A stretch of DNA of 64,000 nucleotides. It comes from Delphinapterus leucas. Lineage: Eukaryota > Chordata > Mammalia > Artiodactyla > Monodontidae. Below are positions 28,890 through 64,000 of this stretch, piece after piece (positions within the stretch are counted from its first letter, which is position 1; every line of letters begins with the position of its first letter). The position numbers were made by a program, and so were the translations under genes. The notes under the pieces were generated by a model, which saw only the letters and a list, made by a program, of their open reading frames with translations, searched no databases and had not been told where the DNA came from. The stretch lies in contig NW_022098050.1 in assembly GCF_002288925.2 (NCBI RefSeq), forward strand, positions 670,977 to 734,976, written 5' to 3'.

Positions 28890-29205
28890 AAATAATGCCT
28901 GCCTTCTCAAGAGTATCCTTGGAGATCCGGAGAAAATAGGGGCAGCATTTTTCCAACGCTGAAAGGAAAATACAGCTGTCAATCCAGAATTCTATATCTG
29001 TCAAAATTATCCTTCCAAACTGAGAATGAAATAAGACACATTCACACAATCAAATCTGAGACCATTTGTTGCTGGACAACCTGTAATACAAGTAATACTA
29101 AAGCAGGGCTTCAGGCTGAAGGGAAAGGACACGTCATGGAAATTAAAAACTACAAGGAGTGAAGAGTACTGGAGAGGGAAAATACGTGGATCAATACGAC
29201 AACTT
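28890..29205 (+). repeat. Mosaic-array segment A, leftmost copy (L1 inter-ORF type)
   Basis: cagcatttttccaacgctga, ccagaattctatatctgtca, atccttccaaactgagaatg, ccatttgttgctggacaacc and gcttcaggctgaagggaaa are the tail of L1 ORF1 and the start of its spacer. The same block recurs at 33.17, 48.19, 54.29 and 59.01 kb. Confidence 0.85.
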
Positions 29206-29419
29206 TATTTTTGAAATACATCTCTATGAAGCAAAAGTGGTAAACAGTATTGTATATGTAAAATATATGACAAGAATATATTCGTCATACAGGAAATGTG
29301 ACAAAGGAAAGGAAAAGGATTAAAGGGAATAAAGTATTGTGAGGATACATGCATGTAGAGTGGTACTATCATAACTCTGAATAGACCAGGATAAGGTAAA
29401 ATATACACACTACTATATA

Positions 29420-29630
29420 TAAAATAGATAATCAACAAGAACCTACTGTATAGCACAGGGAATTCTACTCAATACTCTGTAATAACCTATATGGGAAAAG
29501 AATCTGAAAAATAATAGACATATGTATATGTATAACTAAATCACTTTCCTGTACACCTGAAACTAACACAACATTGTAAATCAAATATACTCCAATATAA
29601 AAAATAAACTGAAAAAGAAAAGAAAAAAAG
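29420..29630 (+). mobile_element. Cetartiodactyl L1 3' end fragment
   Basis: aatcaacaagaacctactgt, agcacagggaattctactca, taacctatatgggaaaagaa, gtataactaaatcacttt and aaatatactccaatataaa mark a lineage-type L1 3' terminus with an A-rich tail. I did not find a clear TSD. Confidence 0.88.
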
Positions 29631-32165
29631 AACAAGGCAAGTATCTCACCACTTTTACTTAACATGGTGCTGGAAGTTCTAGCCAGGACAATAAGGGAAG
29701 AAAAGGAGATAAAAAGCATACACGTGAAAGAAAGATATAAAATTGTCCCTATTTACAGATGACGTGACATCGATAGAGAAAATCCAAAAAAATCTGCCTC
29801 CAAGAAATAATAAGTGAGTTCAGCAAGTTTCAGGATACAAAATAAACTCACAAAATTCAATTTTATCTCCCTATATTAGAAATGAACATATAGAGACTAA
29901 AATTAAAAACACAATAAAATTTTTAATTGCTGAAAAAATAAAATGCTTAGGCACAAATCAGACAAAAGATATACAGACCTTGTATGCTAAAACTACAAAG
30001 GACTGATTAAAGAAATCTAAGGTGTAAAAAAATGGAGAGAATGTACCATACCACAATCGTTCATGGATTGCAAGACAACATAGTAAAATAAACATTTCAA
30101 TTCTCCCCAAATTGATACACTGGCTTAATCCTAATCCTAACAAAATGATAACAGTTTTTTAAAAAGATACAGACAAGACTGTTTTAATATTTATATGTTA
30201 AGACAAAGGAAGTAGGATAAAAACTACTTTTAACAAAAAGAATAAACTTGGAGGAACTACTGTACCCAATTTCAAGGCATGTTATCTAGCCACAGTAATC
30301 ACTACAGTATGATACTGATCAGGAGATACACACATAGCCCAATGGGACAGAAAAAGAACCCAAAATAGCCCCACACCAGTATGGCCAAGTGATTTTTGAT
30401 AAAGCTGGAAAAGCAATTTAATGGAGAAAAGGATAAACTTTTCAACAAATGGTGCTGGAGCAACTGGATATCCACAGGCAAAAATATGAGCCTCTATCTA
30501 AACCTCACAGCCTACACAAAAATGAACTCATAATGGATCATAAATTTAAATGTAAAAAATTTTTTTCAAAATAGCCAGATTAAATCTTTGGGTCTATGGC
30601 TAGGGAACAAGTCCTTAGACTTGACACCAAAAACGTGACCCATAAATGGAAAGTGTGATCTTTTGGACTCCATAATATTTAAAGATTTTGCTATTTAGAA
30701 ACTTTTGGGACTTCCCTGGTGGCTCAGTGGTTAAGGATCTTCCTGCCAATGCAGGAGACACAAGTTCGATCCCTGGTCCAGGAAGATCCCACATGCCGCG
30801 GAGCAACTAAGCCCATGCACCACAACTACTGAGCCTGCGCTCTAGAGCCCGCAAGCCACAACTACTGAGCCCGCATGCTGCAACTACTGAAGTCCATGCA
30901 CCTAGGGCCCATGCTCCGCAACAAAAGAAGCCACAGCAATAAGAAGCCTGCACACTGCAACAAAGAGTAGCCCCCGCTTGCCGCACCTAGAGAAGCCTGT
31001 GTGCAGCAACGAAGACCCAATGCAGCCAAAAATAAAATATAATAAAATTAAAAAATTAAAAAAAAAGGATCTCAACCTTTAAAAAAAAATTAAAAATAAA
31101 TACATAAATAAAAACTTTCACCCTCAGTTAAGAGTATGAACAGACAAGCTACAGATTTGGATAAAATACGTTTGAGCCATATACCCAATAGAGAACTAGT
31201 ATCTAGAATATGTAAAGAACTGTTAAAACTCAACAATATAAAATAAACAATCCAATTTGAAAATGAGCGAAAGATATGAACAAAAAGTTCACCAAAGAGC
31301 ACATGTGCAGATGGTAAAAAAGCACATGAAAAGATGTTTAACATCACAGCCATCAGATAAATGCAAATTAAAACCACAGTGAGATACCATTACACATAGC
31401 AGAATGACTAAAATAAAAAATAGAGAAATAAACAAATTCTCGCAAAATAGAGGCAAACTGTATCACTTATACATTGTTTGTGGGAATATAAAATGTTGCA
31501 GCCATTCTGGAAAACAGGCAGGTTCTTAAAAAACTAAACTTGGAAATATATGATACAGCAATTGCACTCTTGGATATTAATTCCAGAGAAATGAAGATTA
31601 TGTTCACATGGAAACACGTACACAAAAATTTATGGTAAATTTTTCAATATTAGCCCCAAACTGGAAACAACCAGATAATCTTCAAAGAGTACATGGCTGA
31701 ACAAAATGTGGTACATCTATACTAAGAACTACTACACAAAAAGAAAAAGGAATGAACTACCAATACATGCAATAACTTTGATGAAACTCTATAGAATTAT
31801 TCATTATGAAGTAAGCCAGTCTTAAAGGTCACATACAGTATGACTGCATTTATATAACAATCTTGAAATGAAAAGTTTTAGAAATGAAAAACAGATTAAA
31901 GTTGCCAGAATTCATGATTGGAAGGGGATAGTGGGGGTGGGTGTGCCTATAAGTGCAACACGAGGGATCTTTGGGGTGAATGAAATGTATCTATATCTTG
32001 ACCATATCAGTGTGAATATCCCAATTGAGATATTTTACTCTATTTCTGCGAGATGTTAAAATTGGCTAGAAATGGGTAAAAGGTATACAGGGTATCTCTG
32101 TGTGACTTCTTACATGTGCAAGTGAATGCACAATTACGCCAAAATAGAAAGTTTAATTAAAATTG
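29631..32165 (+). pseudogene. L1 ORF2 3' half and 3' UTR remnant
   Basis: The start atggtgctggaagttctagc and tacagatgacgtgacatcg lies in the reverse-transcriptase region. Then come gctggaaaagcaatttaatg, caacaaatggtgctggagca, aaatgcaaattaaaaccaca (C-terminal ORF2) and aatatcccaattgagatatt, ending gaaagtttaattaaaattg. A SINE at 30708 splits it. The same piece with the same right-hand junction occurs at 39.69-42.59 kb. Confidence 0.88.
30708..31070 (+). mobile_element. CHR-type tRNA-Glu SINE, long form
   Basis: Head gggacttccctggtggctca, B-box-like agttcgatccctgg, several cacaactactgagcc-type blocks in tandem, gacccaatgcagccaaaaa and an A-rich tail. TSD not clear because both flanks are A/T-rich. 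Confidence 0.95.
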
Positions 32166-32680
32166 TTTATACTCTTAATATACAGATTGGATACGAGGCA
32201 AAATATATACAAATTAAAATACATTTCAAAAGTAGTATTTTTGAAGATACCTTCCTCTAGTAATGGCAGACTAAGACATTTCAGGTCAAACATTTGCTGA
32301 GAAAAACTGAAAGATGGGAAAATATAAGACATCTGTTTGAAGAAATCATAAATGCAAACAATCAAGCACTGAAAAGACTAGATCTCAGGAAAAAGACTAG
32401 CAAAGGGAGTGAGAACCAAATTTATTAGAGTACCCCTTTCCCTTACAAGATATCCCTCCTCAAATGAGGAGACTGAAAACCCAAGATGCTAAGCAGAAAG
32501 GTATCACTGAAAAGCCAGGCAGCTGAGTAATGTTTCCAGTGGGCTCATCAGTCCATGGGACACATAGGATTTCAGTAAAATGCTCCCTGAAATGTTGTTA
32601 TGAGATCCCTATTAGCTCTACACCAAAATTATAAGGATATTATAAGAACTGAAATCTTACGGTATCAAAATATATCCCTC

Positions 32681-33021: not shown

Positions 33022-33307
33022 TCCCTCATAAGAGGTATATATCCTCCCAAAATAAAACAACTTACGTTTGGAAAACAGGACTCAAAGCTATTTCAACTAC
33101 AATACTCCATAAACAAATAGGGTTTAATTGAAGAATGCATTATGGTGGGATAAAAGTTTTGATGAACAAAAAGACAGACCTTCCAAACTAGAATTTTATA
33201 TTCAACAAAATTACCCTTCTAAACTGAGAGTGAAATAAGACACATCCAGATAAGCAAATCTGAGACAATTTGTCACTGGCCAAACAATACAAGTAATGCT
33301 TAAGGAA

Positions 33308-33776
33308 TATATTAGTTTCCTAGGGTTGCCATAACAAAATACCATAAACTGGATTGCTTAAAAAACAGAAATTTATTGTTTCACAGTTCTGGAGGCCAGA
33401 AGTCTGAAATCAAGCTGTAGGCAGGGCCATGCATCCTCTAAAGCCTGTAGGGCAATCCTTCCTGGCCTCTTCCCAGCTTGCGGTGGTTTTGCCAGCAATC
33501 TTTGGCATTCCTTTGCTGGTACGTGCATTACTCTAAATCCTGCATCTTCACATGCCATTCTCCCTGGGTGTATCTTCACAGAGTCTTCCCTCTATGTATA
33601 TCTGTATCTAGTTCTACATCTCCCCTTTTTATCACCAGTCATATTGGATTAGGGCCCACCCTAATGACCTCATCTTAACTTGACTGCACCTGCAAAGACC
33701 CTATTTCCAAATAAGGTCACATTCTGAGGCACTGGAACTAAGGACTTGTTTGGGTGACACAATTCAACATATAACA
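33308..33776 (-). mobile_element. MaLR-type (ERVL-MaLR) solo LTR
   Basis: attagtttcctagggttgcc, cagaaatttattgtttcaca, gttctggaggccagaagtct, attggattagggcccaccct, ccaaataaggtcacattctg and acacaattcaacatataaca are in the order of a MaLR LTR read in reverse. A 5-bp TSD aggaa lies at 33303-33307 and 33777-33781. It interrupts segment A of unit a. The sub-family is not certain. No internal sequence is present. Confidence 0.85.
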
Positions 33777-35162
33777 AGGAAGGGCTTCAGGTTGAAGGGA
33801 AATGACACCTTATGGAAACTAAGAACTACAGGCTACAAGAAGGCATGAAGAACACAGGAGAGGGAAAATAGGTAGATAAACATAGAAGACTAATGTTTTC
33901 TATTACTTATTTGAGAGACATCTGATTCTTTAAATCAAACATGATAAATGATACTATTGATGTAAACTACAGAACAAGAACACAAAGGAAAGGTCACACA
34001 CATAGCATTATCGCGTAGTGAGGTTACATTTACAGGAAGTGATATTACCTAATTCTATGGAGACAATTAAAAGTAAAGAATTTAATATAAATCCATTGAG
34101 CAACCACTAAACATAACAGAACAGTATGTAGACAATATTTTAGTTACCATTACTGGATAAAAAATTACCACAAAACTTATTTTCTCTAATATATTCCATA
34201 TTTACTTGCCTGTTTTCCCATTAGGCTTTCCCGCAATAATTTAACTCCAGAACATCATCTGCATTTGCTCATGTTTAAAACTGAAGAAGTATTTATGGAA
34301 TGAATGAAATAATTACATTAAAAGAAGTTAAGCAAATGATGGCAAAAATTAAAAAAAAGAATCTACTGCTTGTAAAGATCATTTGAATTAAAAAGAAGTT
34401 GGATGTCTGTTTCCCAGAAGATAGAGTAGACAGACTTTCCCTATTTCTCTTCTTAAGTGCAACCAAACTCCCTGGACAGTATATGTAGAAATGAACACAA
34501 AAATATCCTGAAAGGTGGAGAGACTGAGGAAGACTGACTAGGAAGCTCAGAAGCCAAGGAACAGCACAGTGGTGTTTTCCATGTTTTCTTGGGTACGTTT
34601 TGTTTTCTTTTTGCCTCACGTACATCCCAAACCTGGAGAGGAAAAATCAGGCAACCTGAACATGCCAAAAGCTGCAGGGAAAGAAAGCCTCAAAAAAAGC
34701 CTGCTTGCTCCAAAGGACTAGGAAAGACACAGGCAAATAACAGAAAATTTGTAGGCTTTATTTTTTTTTTCTTATAAAGATAGACCTGTTTGCTGGCCAA
34801 GTGAAAGGATGTACATAGTTCTCATTTGTAAACAAGATTTACCTGCTCAGGCTGCATACCATACTGCCAAAAAAGTGACATGAAGGGGGGTCAAGGTGTA
34901 ATGCTCTCTCATCTTCACAGCATTAAAAATGCAAAATAAAACAAAAATTAAATGGACTTAGTTAATGCAGGGCATTCCCACAAGGAAGAGACAAGAGAAT
35001 TTTAAATCAATCAATAGTTGTATAGGATAAAAAATTATATTAGGCTCAGCCACCCTCACTTCTCTCTCCAGCTCTCCTCATCTGACGTACACCAGTCTGG
35101 AACCAAGAAAGCTGGTAGTCAGCAGCTTTTGCTTTAGAGTCCACTGAGATAAGAAGAGGGCA

Positions 35163-35372
35163 GGGCTTCCCTGGTGGCGCAGTGGTTGGGGGTCCGCCTG
35201 GATGCGGGGGACGCGGGTTCGTGCCCTGATCCGCGAGGATCCAGCGTGGCGCGGAGCGGCTGGGCCCGTGAGCCATGGCCGCTGGGCCTGTGCGTCCGGA
35301 GCCTGTGCTCCGCGGCGGGAGAGGCCACGGCAGTGGGAGGCCCGCACACCGCAAAAAAAAACAAAACAAAAC
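35163..35372 (+). mobile_element. CHR SINE, full length
   Basis: Head ggcttccctggtggcgcag, gacgcgggttcgtgccctg, gtgagccatggccgctgg and an A-rich tail. The TSD gaagagggca is exact at 35153-35162 and 35373-35382. The several overlapping frames at 35046-35503 arise from it. Confidence 0.97.
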
Positions 35373-37595
35373 GAAGAGGGCAAAGTGCTGGAAGACTAGA
35401 TGACCTGGCTTTGACGAGGCACTACTTGCAGCAGTGTTGCACACAGAAGTTCTACACCAGACAAACAGCATCCTCATTCACACCAGCAGAGTCCCAGTGG
35501 TGAACCCAGACGTTCACCATTACCAGGCTGCAAGGAGTCACCCCAAACTGTGTTCCCCATAGTGATTTATTTTTCCCATTTACTCAGCATGCCTGAGAAA
35601 GAAAGAAGTATGACATGGTTACATCCATGCAATTTAGATAGACAGATACCACCACGCGCCTATTAGAAGGGCTACAATAAATAATGACCAAAAGAAGTGC
35701 TGGCAAGGATGTTGGGCAACTGGGACTTCTACACTGCTGGTAGGATGGAAGGTGGTACTATCACAATGCAAAACTCTTTGACATACTCTAAAATAACAAA
35801 CGTATACTTATCATGTGATCTGGCCATACCATTCCTTCATGTTCACCCAAGAAAAACAAAAATATATGTCCATACAAAGACTTGTACAATAATGTATACA
35901 CCAGGGGAAAGGAGAAAGAGTTGGATAGAAACAGGAAGGGGAAATACAAAATTTTACAAGGAAGCTTGAGTGGAGGGATGGACATGTACAGTATTTTACT
36001 TCTGGTGATGGACTTTCAAATATATATACATATGTCAAAACTTATATTGCTGAATTTAAAGTTGTAAAGTTTATCTAAACTCAGTTATATTTCAATGAAG
36101 CTTTTACTAAAGTCTGAGGTACAACAATATGTGTGGCTAAAGGAATACTTATAGCAAAAAAATGCAAAATAGGAAATCCTGAAATTTGTGATCAGAGAAT
36201 CCATCTCAAAATATTGGAGAAAAATCAGTAATTCAATACCAAACCAGTAACAGAAATGAAACAATAAAATTAAGGTCTGTGAGTGATATTAAAAAAAAAG
36301 AAAAGAAAAAATTGAAAAATCTAGAACTTTTTTTTTTCTCGAAAAGAGTTACATAAACCCCTGTCTAGACTGATTAATGGGGAAAAAAAAGATGAAGAAA
36401 AACATATATCCAATATCAGCAATGTAAAGGAAATCCTCATGCCACATCCTGGTGACACATACATAATTATATAAATAACTTTAATAAGTTTGATATACAA
36501 AAAGAAAAAATTCCAGGGAAAAGACAGCTTAATGAGCAATAAAATTTACGAAATCTCAATTATTCTATATCTTGTAAATAAACTGTGTCTGTAATGAAAC
36601 ATCTTCCTACAAATGAATCCCATACGCTGGTGCCTGAAGTCATGAACTTTTCCATATGATGGAAAAAGAAATAACACCAGTGTCGTGCAAGCCTTTCCAA
36701 ATAAAATAGTCAAATGTTCCCCAATATGCTTTGTGAGACTTCCTATAAACTTTACAAACAGAAGGTACCTCAACTCCAATACCCCATGAACATATTGGGT
36801 GAAATATTAAGAATGGAGTCTAGTGAGACAAAAATTTTGTTGTCAAACAACTATTATAAAACAAAGGACAAAATCATGCCACTATCATAATAGAAAGTAA
36901 CAATATGACCAAATTTACCATCCAGTCATGATTTAAAAAAAAAAAACACCTCACAACCTGCAGCAAATATCATGTCTAGTGGTGAAATACTAAAAACCTC
37001 CCTTTGAGATCATGCATTGGAATTAAACAGTTAATTTAACAAGATTTTTAGATTCCATACAGTTAAATATTACACATATTACACATTTTTCTGAGAACAG
37101 CAATTACTACTAACCTTTTTATATATATATAAGAAATGGTGCAAAAGCCCTACACTACAAGGTTATATTTTTATGACTTTTTTCTATATACTGATCAGAT
37201 AAAAACTGATAGAGTTTTAACCCTTATTTTTGCTGTCATTTTTTCTTCTAGTAAGGTAACAGAAACCCCAAAATGTAAGATAAACTTTACTATACACTTG
37301 ACATTTAATTCTAGTAGAATAAAAAGATCATTCTTTGAGACTAATTTCTTAATGATCCCTGTTTAATGTTACTAAGAGTTCAACTTAAAAATTATTTTCC
37401 CTCATATCTTGTTTATATTTTTCTTATTATTTTTTCCTTTCTCTTTTCTCAATCTCCTGTCTAATTTCTTCCTGACATCTTATCTCATTCTGTACTACCT
37501 TAATGTAAAAAGTAAAATGTAGATCTTTCAAAAATTATTAGTAATATGTCATTATCCCTTGGGTTTTTAAATTTTACATCTTTAGTTATACACAT

Positions 37596-37920
37596 TGTCT
37601 CGGTCCTTTCAGGCTGCTGTAGCAAAATATCATATAGCTGGTAGCTTATAAAGAACCGAAATTTATTTCTCACAGTTCTGGAGGCTGGAAAGTCCAAGAT
37701 CAAGGCACCAGCAGATTCATAGTTCATTGATGGTCATTTTCTTCTTGTAACTTCACACAGTGGAAGGGATGAGGCAGCTAGTTGGGGTCTCTGTTAATAA
37801 GGACACTGAGCACTCACAACCTAATCAATCTCTCAAAGGCCCCACCTCCTAATATCAACACATAGGGGGTTAGGTTTCAACAGTGCCTATTGGGGGGACA
37901 CAAACATTCAGTCTGTATCA
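37596..37920 (-). mobile_element. MST/MaLR-type solo LTR, internally shortened
   Basis: tgtctcggtcctttcaggct, tttatttctcacagttctgg, aggctggaaagtccaagatc, aaggccccacctcctaatat and acattcagtctgtatca are an MST-type LTR in reverse. It begins TG and ends CA. The flanks cacat / tacat are a 5-bp TSD with one mismatch. At about 325 bp it is shorter than a usual MSTA of over 400 bp. Confidence 0.85.
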
Positions 37921-40600
37921 TACATACACGGTGTATGTAACAATGTAAAATCTTCCAAAAAATGATTATACATAACCCTTTCTAGAAGTAATCGTGATTA
38001 GTTGAGAAGTGTGTGTATAAACAGATGTAAACATACACACATATTAACATGAAGAATATATTTACATAACCTGTACACATATCTATATGTAAATTACAAT
38101 CTGATTTCTTTATTATTAGCAACAAACCATGAAGATGTCTTTTGTAAATATGTAACATCTACCTAACTGGTTTATAAACTGCATACTATTCATAGTACAC
38201 ACACAGTATAATTTATCAAAAAATAGCTGTTTTGACTTTTACGAATCCATACTTGAATGCACATGTGAGTAGCTGTGTCTGATTTAGTTGTAGAAAGCCA
38301 ATACAGCGTAAAATCTAGATATATTTGTAACTTTGCTAAAAATATCATAATGTTTTCCAAAAACTCATTACCATTTTATATTCCTTCAATAACCTGTTAT
38401 CAAAGCACAAAAGGTATCTTGTTACTTAAATAATTTACGTCAAGTATAAAGCATGCTTAATAGATAACTGCCCATTTATATTTATTTTTTGTTTATCCTT
38501 TGATGAATGCTACTAATTCCATTTTAAAGTACTCTATCATTTCCTAATTGATTACCAAAATTATTATATATTAAGCCCATAGATAGATATGCATAAACAC
38601 TCATTGCTTTCATTTATGTTCTATATATTGCATGGTACCTAATTGATCATCATAAGCATATGTTTATATAAATCATTTTACATGTAAAATACCTCTTTTT
38701 TTTACATGGAAAATACCAAAGCAGAACATTATTGTATATTATAGGAAGTGATAGCATATAACTCTAAGTGTAACATCAAAATAAGGAATTCAAATGCCTA
38801 TCCCTTGAGATGCTACTAAAAATGACACAAATATATAGGTAATATTCTAGTTATTATTAATACATAAGAAATTACCACAAAACTTATCTTCTATAATATA
38901 GTCCATATTTCCTCGTCTGTTTCCCCACTAGGCTGCCTCTCAGTAATGTTAACTGCAGCACATGGTCCACACCTGTCACATGCTGGGAACTGAAGAAACA
39001 TTTTGGGGATGAATAAAATAATTAGATGGAAAGAAATAAAGCAAACGATGGCAAAGAGAAATCTACTGTTTATGAAGATCATTGGCTAAAAAAAATCATT
39101 GGGTATCTGCTTCTAAGAAGATGGGATAGAGATACTTTCCCTGTTTCTTCTAAGTTCAACTAAAAATTACATGTAAAACAAACATAAGAAGACTCTGAAA
39201 GGTGGAAAGATGAGAGACTAGTTAGGGACCTCAGGATTCAATAAACAACACAATGGTGTTTTTCCCTTTTTTTTTTTCTTTTTTTCATTTTGTTTTGGTT
39301 TCACTTTACATTCCAGATCTGAAGATGAAAAATCTGGCAACTTGGAAATGCTGAAAGGTTCAGACATAGAAAGGCACAACAAAAGCCTGCTTTTTGTAGA
39401 TAAAAGGCTAGAAAATGGACAACCTAATAATATAGAAAACTTTTAGACAACAGCCACACAAATACAGCCAAACGCCATTCTCAGCCATACCAGGAAAGGC
39501 TGAATGAGGAGCCTAGACTTCCACCCTCTCCAGGCTGAAAAGGAGTCACCCCAAAATGCCCTCCAATGTTGTCAGAGATGGCTCAGTAGATAGCAGGGAC
39601 TTTCATCCTTGATGGATGGTAAAGAGCACTCCATCCAAAAAAGCGTTAATGTATAGCATGTGGGGAGACTTGACTTCTACCCCCAGATAAGAATACAAGA
39701 CAGAAAGTACCAAAAAAGAAAACTACAGACTAATATCCCTTGAATACAGACACCAAATCCTTATTAAAATATTAGCAAATAGAATTCTGTTATATATAAA
39801 AAGATTATACATCATGACCAAGTGGTTTTAACGCCAAGATTATCAGGCTGGTTAAATATTAGAAAATCAATCAAACTAACCCAAACTAACAAGCTAAAAT
39901 CACATGATCATATAAATCCATGAAGAAAAACAATTAACAAAATACAACATGCATTCATAATTTTTAAAAACCCTCCGAAAAATATGAACAGAGGAAAACT
40001 TCTTAAACTTTAAATAGAACATCTACAAAAAACCTATAGCTAATGTTATTCTTAGCTGTATAATGGTGAAAAACTAAATGGTCTCCTCCTAAGTTCAGGA
40101 ACAGAGCAAGTATGTCTGCTTTCTCTACTGTTATTTAAAACATACTGGAGGGTAAGTCAGGGCAGTAAAGCAACAACAAAAACAAGAAAGGAAATAAAAG
40201 ATCTGAAAGGAAGAAATAAAACCTTCTTCAAGTAATGACTGAGCTCCTCGAGAACACAGGATGTAAGATGAACATACAAAATCAATTATATTTCTACATA
40301 CTAGCAATGAATATGTGCATATATTGTGTTAAAAATACAATAAAATTTATAATTGGTGAACAAAATGAAATACTTTGGTATAAATCGTTCAAAACATGTA
40401 CAGGCCTTATATGCTAAAAATTTCATGACAATGATAAAGTAGATCTAAATAAATGCAGAGACATGCAGTGCTCGTGGATGGGACGACTCAACACAGTAAG
40501 ACTTCAATTCTCCCCAAATCAATATACTGGCTTCATACAAATCTTAACAAAATCAAAACAAGATTGTTTTTAGATATAGACATATATCTAAAAAGATATA

Positions 40601-40608
40601 TATGGATA

Positions 40609-40644
<36 letters not shown>
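40601..40644 (+). repeat. (TA)n/(TG)n microsatellite
   Basis: A short run of TG units passes into about 14 TA units. Confidence 0.97.
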
Positions 40645-40647
<3 letters not shown>

Positions 40648-47705: not shown

Positions 47706-47732
<27 letters not shown>

Positions 47733-50816: not shown

Positions 50817-50852
50817 TAATGACCTCGACAAGGATGACAAGAAAACACACAT

Positions 50853-51009: not shown

Positions 51010-53128
51010 AAGAAGACACACATTATCAACAACAAGAATGTAGAGGGGATTATCACTATGGATTGTGGCATCACATACATTATACTATAATCAAATTCAT
51101 GCCAATATATTTGAAATTACATGAAATGGTGAAATTACAAAAACGAAAGCACCACTCACAAAAGGGTAAACTGGGAAATCTCAATAATTTTATACTTATT
51201 ACATAAAATGCACCTGGATTGAGAAGTTTCCTACAAATGAATTCCATGCCCTGGTGCCTGAATTCCTGATCTTTTCCATGTATTTGAGAAAGATAACAGC
51301 GATCTTGCACAACCTCTTCCACAGAGTACTAACAGTCAGAACACTCTCAAAATGTCTCATGAGACCCTTTAACCAAACTGATAAAGACCTTATACATTAA
51401 AAATATCAAGTCTTTATGCTTCATGACAAAAGGCAATAAATAAATAAATAAAATGTAAAACTTATGTCTTACAAGCAGAATCCAAAGATATTTCAACTAT
51501 AATAGCCCATGAATAAATGGAGTTTCATCCAAGAACGGATTCTTCTCATTTTGAAATCAAACTACTGTGGCAAACAAAGGAATAAAATCATGTCACTAAC
51601 ACAACAGATACAGAGAGGCCATGTGATGTAATTTACCACTCATTCATGATCGAAAAGAAATATTCAGGAAGTTGCAGCAAATACTATACCTACTAGCAAA
51701 ATATTGAAAACCTCTCCCTGAAATGAGGAATGAGAAAGTAGGCCTACTTAGCAACAGTTCTATTGAATATTTTAGGGAGGTCCTAGCCAGTGCAACAATG
51801 CAAGAAAAAAAGAAAAAGAGGCATAAATATTGGAAAGGATTAAATTAATTTACCTTTATTCACAAATTGCATGCTTCTGTTTCCAGACTAATTACCACAA
51901 AATTTATCTTCCATAATATACTTTAACCTGTAGACTGCTATTGTTAAAAGCAATCTATAGGTAATGTAGTACAAATAATGAGTGAATTTATCAAGATTGA
52001 CGGAAACCATACAGTTAAACATACACCCAGTTTTCTGAGAAAGCAATTTTTAGTAAATCTTCTATACACATTTTAAGAAATGGCACAAAACCCTACAGGA
52101 CAAGGTTACATTTTTTTTAAGGTTTTTTCAACATAATTATCAGATAATCTTTGAGAGTTATTATAACCTCAATTATTGTTGTCATTTTTTTCCTGATATC
52201 ATGGTAATAGACACCCCAGAATATAAAATAAAATTGATGACACATGACATTTAACTCAAGAGAAAAATGAAATGAGCATTCTTTGTGACAAGTTTACATA
52301 TGGCTCCTATTCGTTCATCTCATTTACAAATTACAGATCAGTTTTTTGTTAGAGATCAGCTTTTTTTTAGGTGGATCACAATTACTCTTTCCACAAAACT
52401 TGTTTATATTTTTATTATTGTATATCTTCTTTCAAACGCTTTTCTATTTCTGTCTTTAGCATAACTTCTAATCTTTCCTGTACTACTTTAAAAAGGAAAA
52501 TATTTTAAACTAATCATTAATGATATGCATTCATATATTTCTTTGATTTCCTTTTACTACTTATAAGTTTGGTATGTACTGAGTGTAAAATTTACAAAAA
52601 CGTACATGTATATCTCTTCACAGAAATAACCATGATTAACAGCGAAGTGTGTATATGAACAAATATACAAATAAATAAACACTTACAAATGAAATATACT
52701 TATATGCATGTACACACATGTGAAATAAATTACAATTTACTTTATCTTTTATTAGGAATATGACTTGGACATTTCTTCAAGTTACAAGAACTGTTTAGTT
52801 GTAAATCTATATAACAGTCATGGAAAGAACACAATATAATTTACTTAAAAATAGATTTCTTAATTTTAAAGCATACTTTTATATACACTTGTGAGTAGTT
52901 TTGTTGACTATAGTACTAGAAGGAAAATTACTGTTTAGAAAGGGTAGGAAATTTTTCAAATTTCCTTTAAAATGCCAATTTAATATTCAAAAACCCAGTA
53001 TCATTTTTTCCTCCCTCAATAGTTTGGTATCAAGATAAAAAAGAATACCCTATTATTTATTTAAAATGCAGTAACTATTGAGGATACTCAATATAGTAAT
53101 TAGCCACTTATATTTACTTTGTTTTTAT

Positions 53129-53576
53129 TGTGAGAGACTGAATGTACAAACGGACAATGGCCAGACCATATATAAAAATAGAACTCTCACCCACAGCTCT
53201 GCAGCAACCAGCCCGTGAAGCCAAACCACAGATTCTCCAGCAACTGGCCCAAAACAGTGAGGACCTAATCAATAACGGCCAACTTCCCTAATTTCTGCCC
53301 CTACTCCTAACTTAGGATGAAGAGGAAACCAAGTTATGATTCCCTAAGCAAACAAGTACAATGTCCCACTTCTAGCTAGCCTCTCTCTACCTTCCTCAGG
53401 CCAACAACCTCCAATCAGGGCATACCTGAAGCCTTCCCTTTTCTACACCATAAAGCTTTCCCACTCTCCTGCCTGCCTTTGTGTCTCTGCCAAATACAAA
53501 TAACACTGTCTGACTCCCTTGCTATACAGTAAGCTCTGAATAAAGAGTTTTCTTCCTCGCATTTTGACAGTCTCCA
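53129..53576 (+). mobile_element. Solo ERV LTR, 448 bp, with perfect 5-bp TSD
   Basis: It begins TG (tgtgagagactgaatgtac) and ends CA (gacagtctcca). The 5-bp TSD tttat is exact at 53124-53128 and 53577-53581. The polyadenylation signal AATAAA sits at about 53539 (gctctgaataaagagtttt), followed by a U5-like pyrimidine-rich end. The AT-rich flanks join into the segment seen uninterrupted in units b, d and f. No internal viral sequence is present, so it is a recombined solo LTR. Class not assigned. Confidence 0.9.
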
Positions 53577-56500
53577 TTTATTTCCAGACTTGCTTGATTT
53601 TACTATTCCATTTGTTAAAAAAAGAGTCGATCATTTCATAAATATTTGAAAAATCAAATTATATATTAACCATATATATATACATATATCCTTGTTGCTT
53701 TCATATATATATATAGTCTGTTAGAAATTTATTTCAACGTGTACTATATTTACATAAATCATTTCAGATATAGACTATGTCTGCCAAATTGAATGTTATT
53801 GCATAGTATATAATTATTACAAATATAAAATATTTGCTTTAAGTAGTATGAAACACTTCATTATTATTTATCAAGAGTTTTATTTGTCCTCATACAATTT
53901 CTCATGCATGTCAATATTAGCATTAAATAACAAACCATTTTGATATTGCACATGAAAATTTGTATATCATTTAATTTGTATACAGTATGTGCAGACATTT
54001 GTATATATAAATAAGAAGTAAAAATTGGATATTTTGGCTGTTGTAAAATATTTCTTCACATGAGTTTTTTTTTGGCTTTTTTGTTGCTACTGTTAATCCA
54101 ATAAACTATTTACACAAATGGAAAAATTTGGATTGATAAAATAGCTATTAAAATGCTTAAATATTTTATCATTAAACTACATATTGGACATCTATGTGAA
54201 ATATACAGATATTAGTGACGTGTATGAATGTATACCAGAAAAACACTTCTGAAAAATAAGCCACCAATAATGATGATTTAAATGATGGCTGCATTCTCAA
54301 AAGACTCCTTGGAGAAGTGGCAATAATGGAGCAGCATCTTTCCAATGCTGAAAGAAAAATTAAACTATCAACACAAAATTCTTTATCCACCAAAGTTATC
54401 CTTCCAAGCTAAGGGTGAACTAAGATGCAGACACATAAACAAATGTGAGACAATTTGTCCCTGTCCAAAAATAATACATATCCTATAGGAAGTTCTTCAG
54501 GCTCAATGGAAAAATTACCTAATAGAATCTACAAAAAGGAGAGAAGGGAACTGGATAGGGAAAATATGTGGCTAAATATAAAAGTTTTTTTTCTATTATT
54601 TCTGCTTAAAGAGCTGATTCCTTGAAGTAAGAATGAAATAGTACTTTGGATGTAAAATACATAATTTGCAAAATTAATCTAACTGTAAACTTAAGCTTTG
54701 TACATTTACCTGAATATACAATATATTTAATTTAAGAAAATTAAGGAGCAAAAATAAATTATATACACTGAATTTAAGTTTTTAAATAAGAATATTTAAA
54801 TAAAATGCTTGACAAAAGAGCAAAAAGTAAAGGGAAAATAAATGGATTCATACTATTTTGAGGCTACACATACATTAACTGGTACTATTTTAACTCTAAA
54901 TAGACCAAGATAACTTAAAGATCCACGTGGCAATCCTTTGAGTAACCAGTAAATATGATACAAATAGGTATTCTGGCTATTATTACAGCATAAAAGAGTA
55001 CTACAGAATTTACCTTTTATAATATACTCCATATTTACTTGTCTGTTACCCTTTCGGCTACATTTCAATAATGTACCTTCATATGCATACCTGGCACATG
55101 TAGGAAACTAAAGAAATATTTTGGCAAAAGATTGGATAATTGACTCTAGGAGGAAAAATAATTAAAACTAAAACATATTTCAAAAAATAGCATGTGCAGA
55201 GATGTCTTCTTCCAGTAATGGTAGACTAGCCATTTCTGCCCAACCATCCCACTGAGATAAACTAGGAAAGCTGGTAGATATTAAACATTCTGTTCAAAGG
55301 TACCAAAAACCCAAAGAAGCAAGCATTTGAAGAAACTGAATCTCAGAAGAGAAGCCCAGGAAATGAGAAACAAATTTGGTACCTCTTTCCCCCATAAACC
55401 TTTTGCTGATCCAAAGGAGGTGACTAAGAACATAGGATGCTAAGAAAAAAGTTGCAGCTAATAAGCTAAGCAGCTGATCAGGGCTTCCAGTCCTCTCACC
55501 AACTCAGGGGACACAGACTGGGTTCAAGGCCCACCCTGGCAGAGAGAATCTGGAAAACAACCCAGGGGTGAATTTAACATCCTTAAGTGTCTGTGCTCTA
55601 AATGTCAATATAAACCTGAAACAGAAAACTACTCATAAAACCTGAGACCAAACTTCAAAAGACTCAACCACTGATTGTAATGAGATGAATGTATTTTCTA
55701 AAGTATCTTAAAGAAACACATATCATGTGACTCAACCATTCCATTCCTTGATGTTTATCCAAGAAAAAAATGAACATGTATATGCACGCAAAGAATTGTA
55801 TGAAAACGTTCGTAGCATGAAAAAGAGAGAAGGGCTTGGCTGGATCAGAAGGGGGAAAAATTCGAAGATGCACATGGAAACCCGGGAGGGGGATGAATAT
55901 GTTTATCATCTTAACTGTGGTGATGATTTCACAAATATATAGATATCTCAAAAGTTACATTATTTCAATGTTGTATAGTTCATTTTAAGTCAATTACACC
56001 TAAGAAAAGCTGTTAAAAATGTGTGGAATCTACCAAAATGTGTCTAAAGAAACACTCTAGCATTAAAAGCAAAAGAAGAAACCTTGAAAACTGAAGATCT
56101 AATAATCCACCTCACCTCAAAAACTGGGAACCAAAAAGCTGATTTAAATCAAAAGAATAGATAGTAGATATAAAAGAAAATTAGAATTAGCTAATGAAAT
56201 TCAGAAAAATACAAAGACTGACAAATCCAAAAATTATTTTGGCGGGGAAAATGTTTAAAAATTGTAATTCCTGGCAAGACTGATCACACACAAACAAAGG
56301 GAGACATACATTATCAACACATATAGAATATAAAATGGATCATCACTATAGACACTTGAGACCCTTACATAATATTTGAAGTTATTTGACATGACAAAAT
56401 TCCAGAAAAACACACCTTAACAAAACAAGAAATTTTCAAAATCCTATATGTTTTAATTTAATTGTATCCATAATAAAAACCTTCCTACAAATGATTTCTA

Positions 56501-57273
56501 TGGCCTGATGCCTGATTGTGTGAACTTTTCCATAAAATTCAGAAATAAATAATACCAATATCGCCCATCCCCTCACATGGAATAGAAATGGTAAAAACAC
56601 TAACCAAAATATTTAATGAGATCCTTATAAATTTTACAATAAACTGATAATGACAATATAGGAAAGGAAGATCAATGGTTGATATGCATCATGACAACAT
56701 AAAGAAAAAAATCTTTATGAATCCAAACACACTTAAATTATAATATCCCATGAACAAATTGACTTTAATCCAAAGCTGAATTCTTAAGTGGCTTAACATC
56801 TTAACATCAAATCTCCTTAACAAAAGACAAATAACCATGTCACTTTCACAACAGACACAGAGAAACCATCAGGCAAATTTACCATCCAGTTATGAGTTTT
56901 AGAAAAACTCAGAAAACTATAGCAAATATCATAATTAGTGATATAACATTGAAAAACACAACCTGAGATCTGGATGGAGTCAGGTTTGCCTGTTATTACC
57001 AGTTCTCTCAACATTTTATGGAGGTCATGGGCCAATAATGCAGACAAAAGTTAAAAATGCATAAATAATTGGAAAGAAAGAAATGAACACGTCTTTATTC
57101 ACCAATTGGACATTTGTTTCTAGAATATCTCAAAATAATCTATATGTAATAAACCAGAATTAATAACTGCATCTAGCAATATTGCTGGATTCCATACAGT
57201 TAAATCTAAACAAATTTTTCTAAGAAGAGCAATTCTCACTAAACATTTCATACACATCATAAGAAATGGCATG

Positions 57274-57630
57274 GGACTTCCCTGGTGGCTCAGTGGTTAG
57301 GAATCTGCTTGCCAATGCAGGGGACATGGGTTCGTACAGTGGTCCGGGAAGATCCCACATGCCGTGGAGCGACTAGGCCCATGCGCCACAGCTGCTGAGC
57401 CTGCACTCTGGAGCCCATGAGCCACAACTACTGAGCCCATGTGCCACAACTACTGAAGTCCGCGCGCCTAGAGCCTGTGCTCCGCAACGAGAAGCCACTG
57501 CAATGAGAAGCCCGCACACCGCAGCGAAGAGTAGCCCCGACTTGCTGCAACTAGAGAAAGCCCACGCGCAGCAGCGAAGACCCAACGCAGCCATGAATAA
57601 ATAAAGAAATTAATTAATTAATAATAAAAA
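57274..57630 (+). mobile_element. CHR-type tRNA-Glu SINE, long form
   Basis: Head gggacttccctggtggctc, several cacaactactgagccc-type blocks, gacccaacgcagccatgaa and an AT-rich tail. TSD aagaaatggcatg / aagaagtggcatg at 57261-57273 and 57631-57643. Confidence 0.96.
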
Positions 57631-59098
57631 AAGAAGTGGCATGAAAACCCTATACAACAAGATTACAGTTTTAAGTCTTTTTCTGTATACTGATCACATA
57701 AAAATTGAGAGGATTTTGACCCTGATTACTGTTGTCACTTTTTCTGATATCATGGAAAGAGAAGCCCCTGAATATTAAGTAAACTCTACATTACACCTGA
57801 CATTTAATCCTAGTAGTACAGTAAAAAAAAAGCATTCTTTCTGACACTTTTACTCATAGCCCCCAGTATAATGATTTCACTGATTAATTAGAGATCAGTT
57901 TCTTATAAATCGTTCACATCTAAATTAAATTTTTCTCCATGTAAATTTTCTATATTTTTTCATATTATTTCTTTCCCATCTACCTCTGTTATAATTCTGG
58001 CTTTAAGCATAACTTCTCACTGTACTATACTACTTATAAAAATAAAGTAGATAGTTAAAAAGAATCATCAGTAATATGCTCCATGTGACAATTTATTTTA
58101 TTTTATTGATTACGAGTAAAATATGCACTCAGTGTAAAATTTCCAAAAAACACAGATACATATCCTTTCACAGAAGTAACCATGATTAGCAATGAAGAGT
58201 GTAACTGAACAAACGTACATATAAATATGCATCTATATAAATAATACATTTATATACTTATAAACACATGTGAAATAAATTTTCTTGCTTTTTTATTAAA
58301 ATTATATTCTGGAGATATCTTGTGCAATTATATAAGATCTATCTGATTGGCTGTAAAACCTGCAATGCATTTACAGTATGAATACATTATAGTCTATTAA
58401 AAATACCTGTTTTGCCTTTTTGTAGCCATATTTTTACTCACATCTTTGACGAATTCTGTCAGATACACTCATAGAAAGCCAATTATGGTGGAAAAGGGTA
58501 GGCAAATTTAAAATATTGGTAAAAAATAGCAAATTAACTTCCAAAAACTCAGAACCATTCTATACTCCCTCCAAATTCAGGTATCAATATATTAAAAAGT
58601 TTACATCTTAATTTCCACTAGCTATTAAGCATATTATATACTAATTACCATTAGTATTTATTCTTGTATATATCACATATGAATTCTACTAATACAATTT
58701 TTTAAAGAGTATATCATTTCATAATTATTTGAATATCAAAATCATTACATATGAAGTATGTCTATATATTTGTGTATACATGCATAAACTCTTATTTCTT
58801 TCACTCACATTCTATATACTCCCTGTTACTGAATAGGTTCTGATATATACTCTATTTATATAAATCATTTCACTAATAGAATATTTTCCAAAGTAGAGTT
58901 CTTTGTATATATATATATACATATATATATTTTTAAAGACACCAATTGTACTTGAACATTTGTTACTTTTTTTTTCTAATTAATTAATTTATTTATTTAT
59001 TTTTGGCTGCCTTCTCAACAGAATCCATAGAGAACCAAGATAATGGAGCAGAATCTTTCTGATACCCAAAGAAAATATAAAACTGTTAGTAGAATTCT

Positions 59099-59414
59099 TG
59101 TTTTTTTTTTAGATGTTGGGGGTAGGAGTTTATTAATTAATTTATTTATTTTTGCTGTGTTAGGTCTTCATTTCTGTGCGAGGGCTTTCTCTAGTTGTGG
59201 CAAGCAGGGGCCACTCTTCATCGCGGTGCGCGGGCCTCTCACTGTCGCGGCCTCTCTTGTTGCGGAACACAGGCTCCAGACACGCAGGCTCAGTAGTTGT
59301 GGCTCACGGGCCTAGTTGCTCCCTAGCATGTGGGATCCTCCCAGACCAGGGCTCGAACCTGTGTCCCCTGCATTAGCAGACAGATTCTCAACCACTGCAC
59401 CATCAGGGAAGCCC
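59099..59414 (-). mobile_element. CHR-type SINE, reverse, hybrid long/short body
   Basis: The reverse head is at its right end (ccactgcaccatcagggaag). The left end has the long-form tail (gctgtgttaggtcttcattt, gagggctttctctagttgtg) with the short-form middle (gtgcgcgggcctctcactg). TSD ctgttagtagaattct / ctgtcagtagaattct at 59083-59098 and 59415-59430. Confidence 0.95.
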
Positions 59415-59599
59415 CTGTCAGTAGAATTCTATATCCAGAAAAATTATCTTTCCAAACTGACAGTGAATTAAGACATATCCACATAAACAAATCTGAGTCA
59501 ATTTGCCAGTGGACAACCTGCAATTTACGTTATTACTGTAAGTTCTACAGGAAACGAAAGGAAATGGTTGATGGAAACCGAAAACCACAGAAATGCTTG

Positions 59600-59825
59600 A
59601 AAAGCACTGGATGGAGAACCAATACTGCGCCGCTGCTGGTGGCAGCTGGTAATGTCAGTTGGCTGGAATTTCAGCTTAGGAATTTATGTAGCATCATAAC
59701 TGCTGCATTGTATTGGTTACAAAGATTCACTAAGCTTGGCCCAGAATCCTGGGAGCAGCCATAAAACCCGTCTATTGAAGGAAAGGATGTTAAAGAATGT
59801 GTGGACATGTTTTTAAACTGCCAAA
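59600..59825. repeat. Unassigned sequence in unit f
   Basis: Less AT-rich than its surroundings. tgctgcattgtattggttac, caaagattcactaagcttgg and cagaatcctgggagcagcc recall a common interspersed repeat tail (ggttacaaagcaagtcac), but I cannot name it. Confidence 0.4.
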
Positions 59826-60320
59826 GATAAAATTTCAAGAGAGGACTTTAAATTGAATAATAAAAAGTATTCAATAAAACAAAAGGAGGAACAGAAAAAT
59901 AAAGAGATGGGAAAAATAGAAAACAAATGGCAAGATCATCAACTTTAAAACAAACTATATTAGTAATAATATTAAATTTAAGCAGACCTAATCATCCCAA
60001 TTAGAGTGGAGAGTTTTTCAGACTAGAAAAAAGCCAAGTCCTATTTACTATATGCTGTTAACATGTGAAGTAATTTGAATTTCAAGAGACAGGTTGAAAG
60101 TAATAGTATACAAAATAATATACCATGTAAAATTAAGCATAAGAAAGCTTGACTGGGTATATTAATGCCAAAGTAGACCCCAAGAAACAGAGTATAACTG
60201 GAGATATATAGGGACATTTCATTATGATTAATGAATCCACTTATCAGGAAGACAATAATCCTAATGTTTAGGAGCCTAATTACAAAACTTCAAAGTACAT
60301 GAAACAAAATCTGAGTTTTT
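59826..60320 (+). mobile_element. L1 inter-ORF and endonuclease-region fragment
   Basis: atagaaaacaaatggcaaga, aaatttaagcagacctaatc, taccatgtaaaattaagcat, agggacatttcattatgatt and cttcaaagtacatgaaacaa follow the L1 order from the spacer into the ORF2 endonuclease region. The frame is lost. Confidence 0.82.
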
Positions 60321-61385
60321 TGTAATTTTCAGTTTGCCACTAAAATTCTTAATTTTGTCTCCTGTTTATTTGAACATAGGCATTTTTAATGCACATCTGA
60401 TAGGTCTTTTATCTGGTTAACTTGTGATTCTACTTCTGTTATCTGCTGTTTCTACTGGGTTTTGGTCACGTGTTCTTTTCTCCTACTTATCCTGGCCATT
60501 TTTAATTGTATGCCAAAAACTATATATAAAAATTGTAGAGATAATTCAAATTTAATTTCACTCTGGCTTCGCTACTACCAGCGCTATCACTTCCAGACCT
60601 ATTTATTCCAAACAGAGATTCAAATGATTCAAAGTTTAGCCTGGTAAAGAGTTGGTCATTTTCAGCTTTACTGTTGCTCCCAAACTATAGCCCTCAGTGT
60701 CCCATCCAAACCCAGCAGAATTTACAGCCTCTTATCCTGCTGTCCACCACACATAGACAATGATTAGCAAATCCCCAAATCTGGTTTTCCCTGTGACCTG
60801 GTGAGTTTATTGAAAGTTCTGTTCATTGTTCTACCTCTAAGTAAGCTATCTGAATCTGTATATTCCTCAAGGGGAAAGACAACTGCAAATATTCAACTGA
60901 ATTCTATGGATCTTCACTTTGTAATTTTTCTGGCAGACCACTGCCTTTGTTTGTTCTTCAATCCCTCTCTCCCTCTCTCCCTCCCTCTTTTTCTCTCCAT
61001 CTATCTATCTTCCAGCATTTCAAGTTGCATGGGTAGTCTGATTTACCTAGTCTGCCTTGATCAGACGAGCATCTCCAATATATAAATGAGTACATATTAC
61101 AGGTCTTAGTATGCCACTGACTTTGTTTTTGGCTCAATATTATATTTGTGAGATTCATCCATGTTGATGTACGTAATTTATAGTTCATTTATTTTCAAAT
61201 CATGGGCACTAAGTTTGTTTTTATCATATAGATAGATAAGTGATAGGCAGACTTACTTGGACAGAGATTGTAATTTGTTTGATGAAAGTTTCTTGAAATC
61301 CTTAATACCTATTTTAAGACTTAATATGTGATCAGGTGTCATTAATTTATGCTAATATAACAACATGTATTGAATACATACCTAT
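60321..61385. repeat. Old LINE-like repeat, mostly unassigned
   Basis: About 60.43-60.55 kb (gttttggtcacgtgttcttt, cctggccatttttaattgt) resembles 0.58-0.69 kb of this window. A pyrimidine tract lies at 60960-61006, and 61140-61200 (gtgagattcatccatgttga) looks like an antisense L1 3' piece. The 94-codon frame at 60801-61085 has no recognisable domain. Confidence 0.4.
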
Positions 61386-61684
61386 ATCTTAGCCCTTATC
61401 TTCTCTAATATATCTCCTTATTTTCTTGACTATTTCCACATTAAGCAGTAACCCAATAATGTACCTCCAACAGATGGACCACACTTGGCACATGTTGGGA
61501 ACTGTGGAAATATTTATTGATTCAATCAATTTTAAATCGAGGGAATTTAAGCAAATGATGACGAAAAGGACTGAATCCTCAAGAAGAACGTTTGCCTTGA
61601 AATAATTTGCTTACCTTCTTAATATTACTTGGATTAATTAGCTACAAGAAACAAAACTATTACAAACTAATACATATTTCAAAA

Positions 61685-63357
61685 AAATTGTATTTGGAGA
61701 GATGTCTGATTCCAGTAATGGTAGACCATTTCAGCCCAACCATCCTACTGAGAAAACCTAGGAAATCTGGAAGATATTAAAGATATTATTTAAAGGCACC
61801 AAAGACCCAAGGAAGAGACAGGATCTCAGAGAGAGGAGAAGCCCAAGTGGTGAGACTCAAATTTGGTACCACTTTTCCCCCTTAGGTCCTTTACTAATTC
61901 AAAAGGGATACTGAGGACCCAAAATGTTAAGCAGAAAGTTGTAGCTGAGAAGCTATGCAGTTGATCAGGGCTTCCAGCCCAGGGGACACAAATTGGACCT
62001 GACTACACACCACCGAGGAGAGGTTCTGGAAAACAATCCAACATATCATTTGACATCTCTGAGAGGATATGCCCTAAATGTAAATATGAACCAGAAATAC
62101 AAAACTCTTCACAAAACCTGAGACCCAGCCTTAAAAGAACACAATCCCTCACTGTTATGAGATGAATTACTCCCACGCTGATTGCCCCTCATAAGCAAAA
62201 TAAAATGCTCCATGGCCTCCAATTATCTCCATAGTGTTTCATACAGAAAACCTAGTTTGCAGTCAAAAATAAACATACATACAAAAATGAACAGAAAGGA
62301 AAGGATTAGCATCAGGCCTATATTACATTTTCCCCACTTACTGTGGATGCCAGGACAGAAAGATCAATGACTTGGTTATACCCACACAATTTAGAGTGAC
62401 CGTGATATATCACTGTATACCTATTAGGGCTAGAATTTAAAATACTGATGATTCCCAGTGCTGACAAAGATGCAGAGCTACTGTGACTTTCATACACTAC
62501 TAATAGAATATAAAATGATTCAATCATTTGGAAAACCTCATTGACTTATTTATGATGTGATCCATCCTTTCCACTTCTGGGTGTTTATTCTAGAGAAATT
62601 AAAGCTTATGTCCACACACATGTTTGTATAAGAATGTTCAATGCCTGGACAAGGGACCATGGAGAAAGTCAGGAGAGGTGATTACACAACTCCACATGGG
62701 AATTTTGGCAAGTAACAGATATGTTCATTATCTTGTTTTGTGAATATATACATATATGCAAATCATAACATACTGCATATTTTAAAATTATACAATTTAT
62801 AGTTATACCTCAACAATCTTTTCAAATGCGTAGGATGCACCAAAACATGCATCTAAAGAAAATTTCCCATGTTAAATGCAAAAGAGAAAATGCTGGAAAA
62901 TTCAGGACCTGATTATTCCTCAAAAAACTTTAGAAAAAAATGGTAAAGTGGAGAAAATAAAACTAACAATAAAATTTAATGAAGTTTTAAAAATACAAGA
63001 GAATATCAACAAAACCAAAAGAGTTCTTTTTTCAAAGGGTTAATAAAATTGATAAACATCTAGCAAGGCTGATATAGAAAAAAGAGAAGGCATGCATAAT
63101 CCATATTAGGAATATAAAGGGGGTCATCCCTACAGATTCTTGAGACATAGACATAAAATTATAAGAAGTTGTATCCAATACATTTAACATGAGATGAAAT
63201 GACAAAATTCCAAGAAAAACACAGGTAAAAAAAGAAAATTTAGGAAACAGTGAAAAACTTCAAAAAAGGTTTAATTTGACCCATTTGAAATTTATATCAA
63301 ACCAAAAAGAGTTTTATAGGAAAGGAAGATCAAAGGTCTCTTTCATGACCAAAAAAA

Positions 63358-63395
<38 letters not shown>

Positions 63396-64000
63396 AACGC
63401 TTAACAAACTTAATCCAAGATACAGCAACTGTAATATACATAAACAAATAATGTTTAATCCAAGATAAATTCATGTTTTGTATCATCTGGAAATCAAACA
63501 AAGTTAACAGAACAAAAGAATAAAATGATAGGTTTATCCCAAAATATGCAAAAATGCCATTGGAAAAAATTAAGCTCGATTAAAAGCAAAAGAACTCAGA
63601 AAACTGAAGCAAATATAATAACTAGTGTTGAAATATTGAAAACTTAGCCCCTTGAGATCAAGAACAACACAAGTATGCTTATTATCACTAGTTTTGCTCA
63701 ACATTTTAGGGAGGCCCTAGCCAGGGCAATAAAACAAGAAAAAGATAAAAACAAAGGCATAACGATTGAAAGAGAAGGAATGCAACCGCCATTATTCACA
63801 GGTTGCATCATTACATATTTATAATATCTAAAAGTAATCTATCCTTAGTGTGTTTGAATAAATTAGTCAATTTAGCAAGATTACTGGGTACAAGCTCGAC
63901 AAAAAAATCAAGTGTAATTCTAGATGCCACAAACAGTTAATTAAAGAATTACATTACTATAAAAATACTATTTACGACAGCATCAAAGAACGTCAAACTC
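61685..64000 (+). repeat. Mosaic unit g, cut by the window edge
   Basis: C (tggtagaccatttcagccca, gaaatctggaagatattaaa), D (62390), E (62790), the L1 ORF2 part and G (63590, attttagggaggccctagcc) are present. The unit continues past 64000. Confidence 0.85.
63361..63394 (+). repeat. (GT)n microsatellite
   Basis: 17 TG units without interruption, preceded by an A-run. Confidence 0.98.

What the first reader, a model, noticed from the sequence alone, without database searches (positions are those of the whole stretch)
28890..64000. Tandem duplication of a composite L1-mosaic unit, about 6-6.5 kb, at least four regular copies
Nine landmarks recur in the same order and orientation, including junctions between sense and antisense L1 pieces. 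Independent insertions would not recreate those junctions, so a composite block was amplified head-to-tail. By eye, copies are around 80-85% identical in segment C, suggesting an old event. The array runs off the window, so its full size is unknown. Arrays of this type can be sites of recurrent copy-number change.
Basis: seen in the sequence. Interest (0 to 1): 0.75.

Follow-up and report, generated by a model that had tools for sequence, protein, structure and literature searches.

The report
Ancient decayed tandem duplication, six units
About 35 kb of this whale-like DNA is a row of roughly six old, badly worn copies of one 6-kb block built largely from dead LINE-1 fragments; it is a real tandem duplication, but older than first thought, and no gene was found in it.

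Summary
The core observation holds: 28.7-64.0 kb is a head-to-tail array of a composite block, not a pile of independent L1 insertions. I find six copies (U0-U5); U1-U4 carry most of the unit. With SINEs masked, the array matches itself in 74 stretches on the same strand and 0 on the opposite strand. Copies are collinear through L1 pieces and through about 2 kb with no detected L1. The array's segment-e pieces are 58-70% identical to each other but 44-50% to two other L1s.
Corrections: copies are 61-68% identical overall (segment c 61-76%), not 80-85%. No antisense L1 was detected. Spacing is 5.3-6.8 kb on the right and 4.7-10.0 kb on the left, where a nested L1 and deletions distort it. That L1 lies between b and c in U0-U2; the site is intact without it in U3 and U5, and trees independently separate the two halves. 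Three later insertions have clear empty sites in other copies. K2P distances of 0.42-0.56 suggest roughly 95-125 million years (recalled rate). Current copy-number change is unlikely at this divergence (inference). An ordinary molecular fossil with an internal marker.

The parts
28690..32590 (+). Copy U0 (partial): a, b, nested L1 (about 29.6-32.14 kb, itself carrying a SINE at 30.70-31.07 kb), c; segments d-h missing
   Evidence: Self-BLAST 28779-29281 ~ 48057-48565, 29786-32575 ~ 40214-43005, 32145-32571 ~ 49075-49502
33130..38560 (+). Copy U1: a, b, start of the nested L1, (c missing), d, e, f-h
   Evidence: Self-BLAST and alignment; shares the left end of the nested L1 with U2
38500..47715 (+). 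Copy U2: b, nested L1 39.17-42.56 kb, c, d, e, f-h; segment a largely lost
47940..54085 (+). Copy U3: reference unit, a to h; carries an LTR-like insertion 53.13-53.59 kb and what looks like a younger L1 3' end 50.86-51.02 kb
54070..59000 (+). Copy U4: a to h; SINE at 57.27-57.63 kb found in this copy only
59017..64000 (+). Copy U5: a (split by a SINE at 59.10-59.42 kb), unidentified 1.65-kb stretch 59.66-61.31 kb, b, c, d, e; the window ends here
54309..54425 (+). Segment a of U4: L1 ORF1 C-terminal (dsRBD-like) remnant; below-threshold matches at the equivalent place in U0 (28938-29039) and U1 (33154-33243); none found in U2, U3 or U5
   Evidence: Pfam PF17490 E=1.2e-5, above its cut-off; PDB 2ldy E=7e-5; E about 0.07-0.08, below cut-off, in U0 and U1
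31133..31831 (+). L1 ORF2 C-terminal remnant in the nested L1 of U0
   Evidence: phmmer to PDB 9k6g and 8uw3, ORF2p residues about 1027-1264, E=1.7e-22
39170..42558 (+). Nested L1 (about 3.4 kb) between b and c in U2; its left end is shared with U1 and its right end with U0; absent from the intact site in U3 and U5 (in U4 the site itself is deleted)
   Evidence: Junction alignments; left and right flank matches overlap by about 50 bp in U3 and in U5
52083..54070 (+). Segments f-h of U3 (apart from the LTR-like insert): no L1 match found; repeated in U1, U2 and U4 at 65-71% identity

Best explanation
One block of about 6 kb, already a mosaic of dead L1 fragments plus about 2 kb of other DNA, was duplicated head-to-tail. 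After the first duplication an L1 inserted between segments b and c of one unit; that unit gave rise to the left half (U0-U2) while the L1-free form gave rise to the right half (U3-U5). The expansion was short (short internal branches, long terminal ones); the array then decayed by substitution, deletion and later SINE/LTR-like/L1 insertions. Shown: tandem same-strand copies, order, shared nested L1, divergence. Inferred: unequal exchange between L1-rich units as the way copies multiplied, the absolute age, and lack of present function.
For: 74 plus versus 0 minus self-matches with controls. Non-L1 segments f-h are as similar between U1-U4 (65-71%, 6 pairs) as the L1 segments are. e copies 58-70% to each other versus 44-50% to two other L1s (a third L1, the nested one of U0, was left out of that call). 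Nested L1 between b and c: left end shared by U1 and U2, right end by U0 and U2, intact site without it in U3 and U5. Trees separate U0-U2 from U3-U5: bootstrap 95 all segments; 100 c (without U1), 97 d and 100 e (both without U0). Insertions with clear empty sites: U4 SINE empty in U1, U2, U3 (z 28-33); U5 SINE empty in U0, U1, U3, U4 (z 15-19); U3 LTR-like insert empty in U2 and U4 (z 12-16) and weakly in U1 (z 5). The U5 SINE has a duplicated target of about 15 bp (read by eye). K2P 0.42-0.56 in all 15 pairs.
Against: The f-h tree (four copies) does not show the split (it joins U2 with U3, support 33) and the a-b tree gives it 29. U2 hardly has segment a, U0 lacks d-h, U1 lacks c. Of 11 sites in the empty-site test only three were clear in two or more copies; the same test of the nested L1 gave z 6.5 in U5, 1.5 in U3 and -0.9 in U4, so its empty site rests mainly on the alignments. 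The ORF1 domain reaches its threshold in one copy only. The age uses a recalled rate.
Confidence: 0.9

Rival explanations
1. The landmarks are independent L1 insertions in an L1-rich, AT-rich region and only look periodic.
For: L1s also occur outside the array; L1 protein remnants are found in several copies.
Against: No masked self-match is on the opposite strand, 74 are on the same strand; e copies are clearly closer to each other than to two other L1s; non-L1 segments recur in the same order; nested-L1 junctions are shared.
Confidence: 0.03
2. Each unit once carried a gene or exon and the array is the remains of a small gene cluster (segments f-h being gene remnants).
For: Old tandem arrays in mammals are often kept around genes (recalled); f-h is non-L1 DNA present in U1-U4. 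Of 132 open frames of 50 or more codons in the aligned copies, 44 are open in at least one other copy against 20 in column shuffles (0 of 200 reach it), and one 53-codon minus-strand frame in segment e is open in all five copies that carry it, which 19 of 200 shuffles match.
Against: Six frames of 42.5-57.5 kb give no Pfam or PDB match except L1 ORF1. Frames open in two or more other copies do not exceed shuffles (7 against 5.4; 57 of 200 reach it). The excess for one partner may reflect once-coding L1 parts and the larger number of open frames in the real alignment (132 against 81). Identity is fairly even along the unit.
Confidence: 0.1
3. The array is a young (cetacean) duplication that diverged fast.
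Against: Copies differ by K2P 0.42-0.56, while 21 pairs among seven SINE insertions of the window differ by 0.08-0.32; the two SINEs with clear empty sites in several copies are each in one copy only.
Confidence: 0.04

Closest known systems
Ancient segmental (tandem) duplications of mammalian genomes
   Same: Kilobase-scale low-copy duplicated block, here in tandem, with internal dead repeats
   Different: At 61-68% identity it lies below the 75% that SEDEF, a detector of older duplications, is described as reaching (PMC8932185, passages seen)
L1-mediated unequal-exchange duplications, as proposed for globin-type clusters (recalled)
   Same: Units rich in same-orientation L1 fragments, head-to-tail copies
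   Different: No gene found in the unit and no breakpoint shown to lie inside matching L1s
Half-L1 (HAL1) elements (recalled resemblance)
   Same: Segments a-b look like ORF1 followed directly by a 3' part without ORF2
   Different: Not tested against a repeat library

Membership tests
Tandem segmental duplication | Two or more collinear copies of a block of 1 kb or more, head to tail | tested here: met
Tandem segmental duplication | Block includes DNA that is not itself an interspersed repeat | tested here: inconclusive
   f-h repeats in U1-U4 and has no L1 hit, but no repeat library was available
Tandem segmental duplication | Copies at least 90% identical (conventional modern segmental duplication; recalled) | tested here: not met
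   61-68% in all 15 pairs; it can only be called an ancient one
Independent L1 insertions | Both orientations, copy-specific ends | tested here: not met
   0 minus-strand matches; shared nested-L1 ends
Active copy-number hotspot | Long, nearly identical tandem copies | tested here: not met
   copy number in populations was not tested
HAL1 | Match to the HAL1 consensus | not testable with these tools
   No repeat library held

The most novel reading that the evidence does not exclude
The array formed before or around the placental radiation and survives, in order, as a gene-free tandem array in several placental orders, with the nested L1 as a marker of the order of duplication; its right end lies at or just past the window edge, where U5 keeps the original L1 flank.
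Probability: 0.45. Interest if true: 0.4.

Novelty: new member of a known kind. Interest (0 to 1): 0.25.

Why it matters
It is an example of a tandem duplication without a detected gene that can still be recognised at about 65% identity, below the range quoted for a detector of old duplications, with an internal L1 that orders the duplications. It could serve as a test case for finding very old duplications. It gives no evidence of a function or of present instability.

Tried and rejected
Looked for genes with Pfam: six frames of 1-29 kb and of 42.5-57.5 kb, the three plus frames and one of three minus frames of 28-43 kb, the three plus frames of 57-64 kb (no match). The array gave only L1 ORF1 matches. 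Two minus frames of 28-43 kb and the minus frames beyond 57.5 kb were not scanned. PDB: one frame of 28-43 kb, six frames of 42.5-57.5 kb, three plus frames of 8.7-15.7 kb. Rfam: nothing at its gathering scores in the window.

A first six-sequence alignment that kept the nested L1 gave misleading identities of 43-68% and was replaced by one with insertions left out. I first took the SINEs at the ends of U2 and U4 for one shared insertion; the alignment showed different sites. An ORF2 tree that put other L1s next to U5 (support 98) fell to 55 when the tail was left out, so it is not used for rooting. One search also left out the nested L1 of U0. In one search the rows U2 and U3 were skipped for the SINE between them; the L1 3' end in U0 gave z 6-11 in U3, U4 and U5, but in U5 at a non-equivalent L1 stretch, so I set it aside; the L1 3' end in U3 gave only z 4.0-4.5 at the equivalent places in U2, U4 and U5. 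My first reading of the open-frame scan, that conserved frames are broken in other copies, was too strong and was replaced by the control.

The idea that e|f is the original duplication breakpoint is left open: U5 seems to continue into L1 there, but U0 does not start with f. The best match of that test, the L1 left of the array, runs to 28759, some 70 bp past my U0 edge.

The window's own genome and other mammals could not be searched: no genome search was answered. Literature searches listed no paper whose title or abstract start concerns this array; passages of PMC9223172 and PMC8932185 were seen, otherwise listings only.

Full report
Observation. Self-comparison of the window shows same-strand off-diagonals from about 28.7 kb to the end. 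With the tRNA-type SINEs masked, 28.69-64.0 kb matches itself in 74 same-strand stretches and none on the opposite strand at E<=1e-6; the reversed sequence gives 3 and ten block shuffles give 0 to 4 each. The repeated landmarks are real and far above chance.

Anatomy. Taking U3 (47.94-54.09 kb) as reference, the order is a (L1 ORF1 C-terminal remnant, by its homology to U4), b, c, d (resembles an L1 3' end; recalled), e (resembles the middle of ORF2; recalled, in line with its matches to other L1-like stretches), then f-h, about 2 kb in which I found no L1. Firm protein anchors are the ORF1 dsRBD-like domain in U4, with below-threshold matches at the equivalent places in U0 and U1, and the ORF2 C-terminal part in the nested L1 of U0. 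These are on the + strand. No antisense L1 was detected, but decayed L1 escapes these searches and some minus frames were not scanned.

Copies. U1-U4 carry most of the unit, U0 and U5 are partial. U0 lacks d-h, U1 lacks c, U2 has little of a and is stretched by a 3.4-kb nested L1, and U5 has an unidentified 1.65-kb stretch between a and b. With landmarks placed by hand from those calls, spacings are 5.3-6.8 kb from U3 to U5 but 4.7-10.0 kb on the left.

Divergence. Over an alignment with inserted stretches left out, all 15 pairs are 61-68% identical, K2P 0.42-0.56. By segment: c 61-76% (10 pairs), d 61-72% (10), e 61-71% (10), f-h 65-71% (6 pairs among U1-U4; four pairs with U5 rest on 105-116 sites at 45-56% and I set them aside), a-b 50-68% (15 pairs). 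With a neutral rate of 2.2e-9 per site per year (recalled) the pairs date to roughly 95-125 million years.

Duplication rather than independent insertion. The non-L1 part f-h is as similar between copies as the L1 parts. e copies are 58-70% identical to each other but 44-50% to two other L1s, one left of the array and one nested in U2. By eye the d copies share one arrangement that differs from the nested L1s. An L1 lies between b and c: U1 and U2 share its left end, U0 and U2 its right end, whereas b runs into c at an intact site in U3 and U5; in U4 the site itself is deleted. Trees separate U0-U2 from U3-U5 independently (95 for all segments, 100 for c, 97 for d, 100 for e; not in f-h, 29 in a-b). 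A joined-flank test of the nested L1 was weaker: z 6.5 in U5, 1.5 in U3, -0.9 in U4.

Relative age. Of 11 insertion sites tested, three gave clear empty sites in other copies: the SINE in U4 (3 copies), the SINE in U5 (4 copies) and the LTR-like insert in U3 (2 copies); the SINE in the nested L1 of U0 has an empty site in U2 (z 8); the L1 3' end in U3 was weak (z 4.0-4.5) and the rest were not informative. The SINEs resemble the CHR type (recalled); CHR-1 is described as identified in cetaceans, hippopotamuses and ruminants (PMC9223172, passages). If that name is right, the duplications predate those cetartiodactyl insertions. Pairs among seven SINEs differ by K2P 0.08-0.32 (21 pairs), well below the array copies.

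Coding. Of 132 open frames of at least 50 codons in the aligned copies, 44 are open in at least one other copy (shuffle mean 20, 0 of 200 reach 44), but frames open in two or more others (7) do not exceed shuffles (5.4; 57 of 200). One 53-codon minus-strand frame in segment e (about 56258-56416 in U4) is open in all five copies that carry it; 19 of 200 shuffles have such a frame. I read the first excess as a trace of once-coding L1 parts; it is not proof that no gene was there.

How it probably worked. A first head-to-tail duplication of unknown mechanism, then unequal exchange between L1-rich units, an L1 insertion in one of the early units, a short expansion into two halves, and decay since. 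The steps after 'tandem copies' are inferred from tree shape and the nested L1. Current instability is unlikely at this divergence (inference).

Limits. No eukaryotic genome could be searched here, so orthologs, the right end, the repeat subfamilies and the species are untested. The last part of U5 fits two of three L1s (z 4.3 and 2.4; 0.6 to the third) better than segment f of U1-U4 (z -0.1 to 1.3), which hints that U5 is the last copy.

Noticed in passing
window 8780-15740: A second, unrelated decayed tandem array with units of about 420-450 bp: best copies at 12.28-14.62 kb (74-83% identical to one unit), worn ones from about 10.2 to 15.1 kb. At its left edge, about 8.79-8.93 kb, lies a nucleoside diphosphate kinase (NME1/2-like) remnant (PDB E=2.3e-6; Pfam E=1.9e-4, below its cut-off). 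Some units look by eye like further pieces of that gene; the other two plus frames gave no match.
   Followed up: partly
window 53128-53592: LTR-like insertion in U3, about 460 bp, with an empty site in U2 and U4; its nature is recalled, not tested.
   Followed up: partly
window 23939-25369: L1 ORF1 remnant outside the array: Transposase_22 E=1.3e-9 at 23939-24169 and a below-threshold dsRBD match at 25310-25369.
   Followed up: no
window 32880-32979: Run of exactly 100 N beside the A-tail of a SINE between U0 and U1, probably an assembly gap, so the U0/U1 boundary is not fully known.
   Followed up: no
window 59660-61310: Unidentified 1.65-kb stretch between a and b in U5; no empty site could be shown.
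   Followed up: no
window 7523-7744 and 17617-17838: Inverted pair of stretches 89% identical, parts of which also match 29.4-29.66 kb and 50.9-51.0 kb; probably a younger L1 3' end (recalled).
   Followed up: no
window 56258-56416: A 53-codon minus-strand frame in segment e, open in all five copies that carry the segment; 19 of 200 column shuffles contain such a frame.
   Followed up: partly
window 24412-24484: ARAGORN reports a tRNA-like structure without a clear anticodon, probably the tRNA-derived head of a SINE.
   Followed up: no
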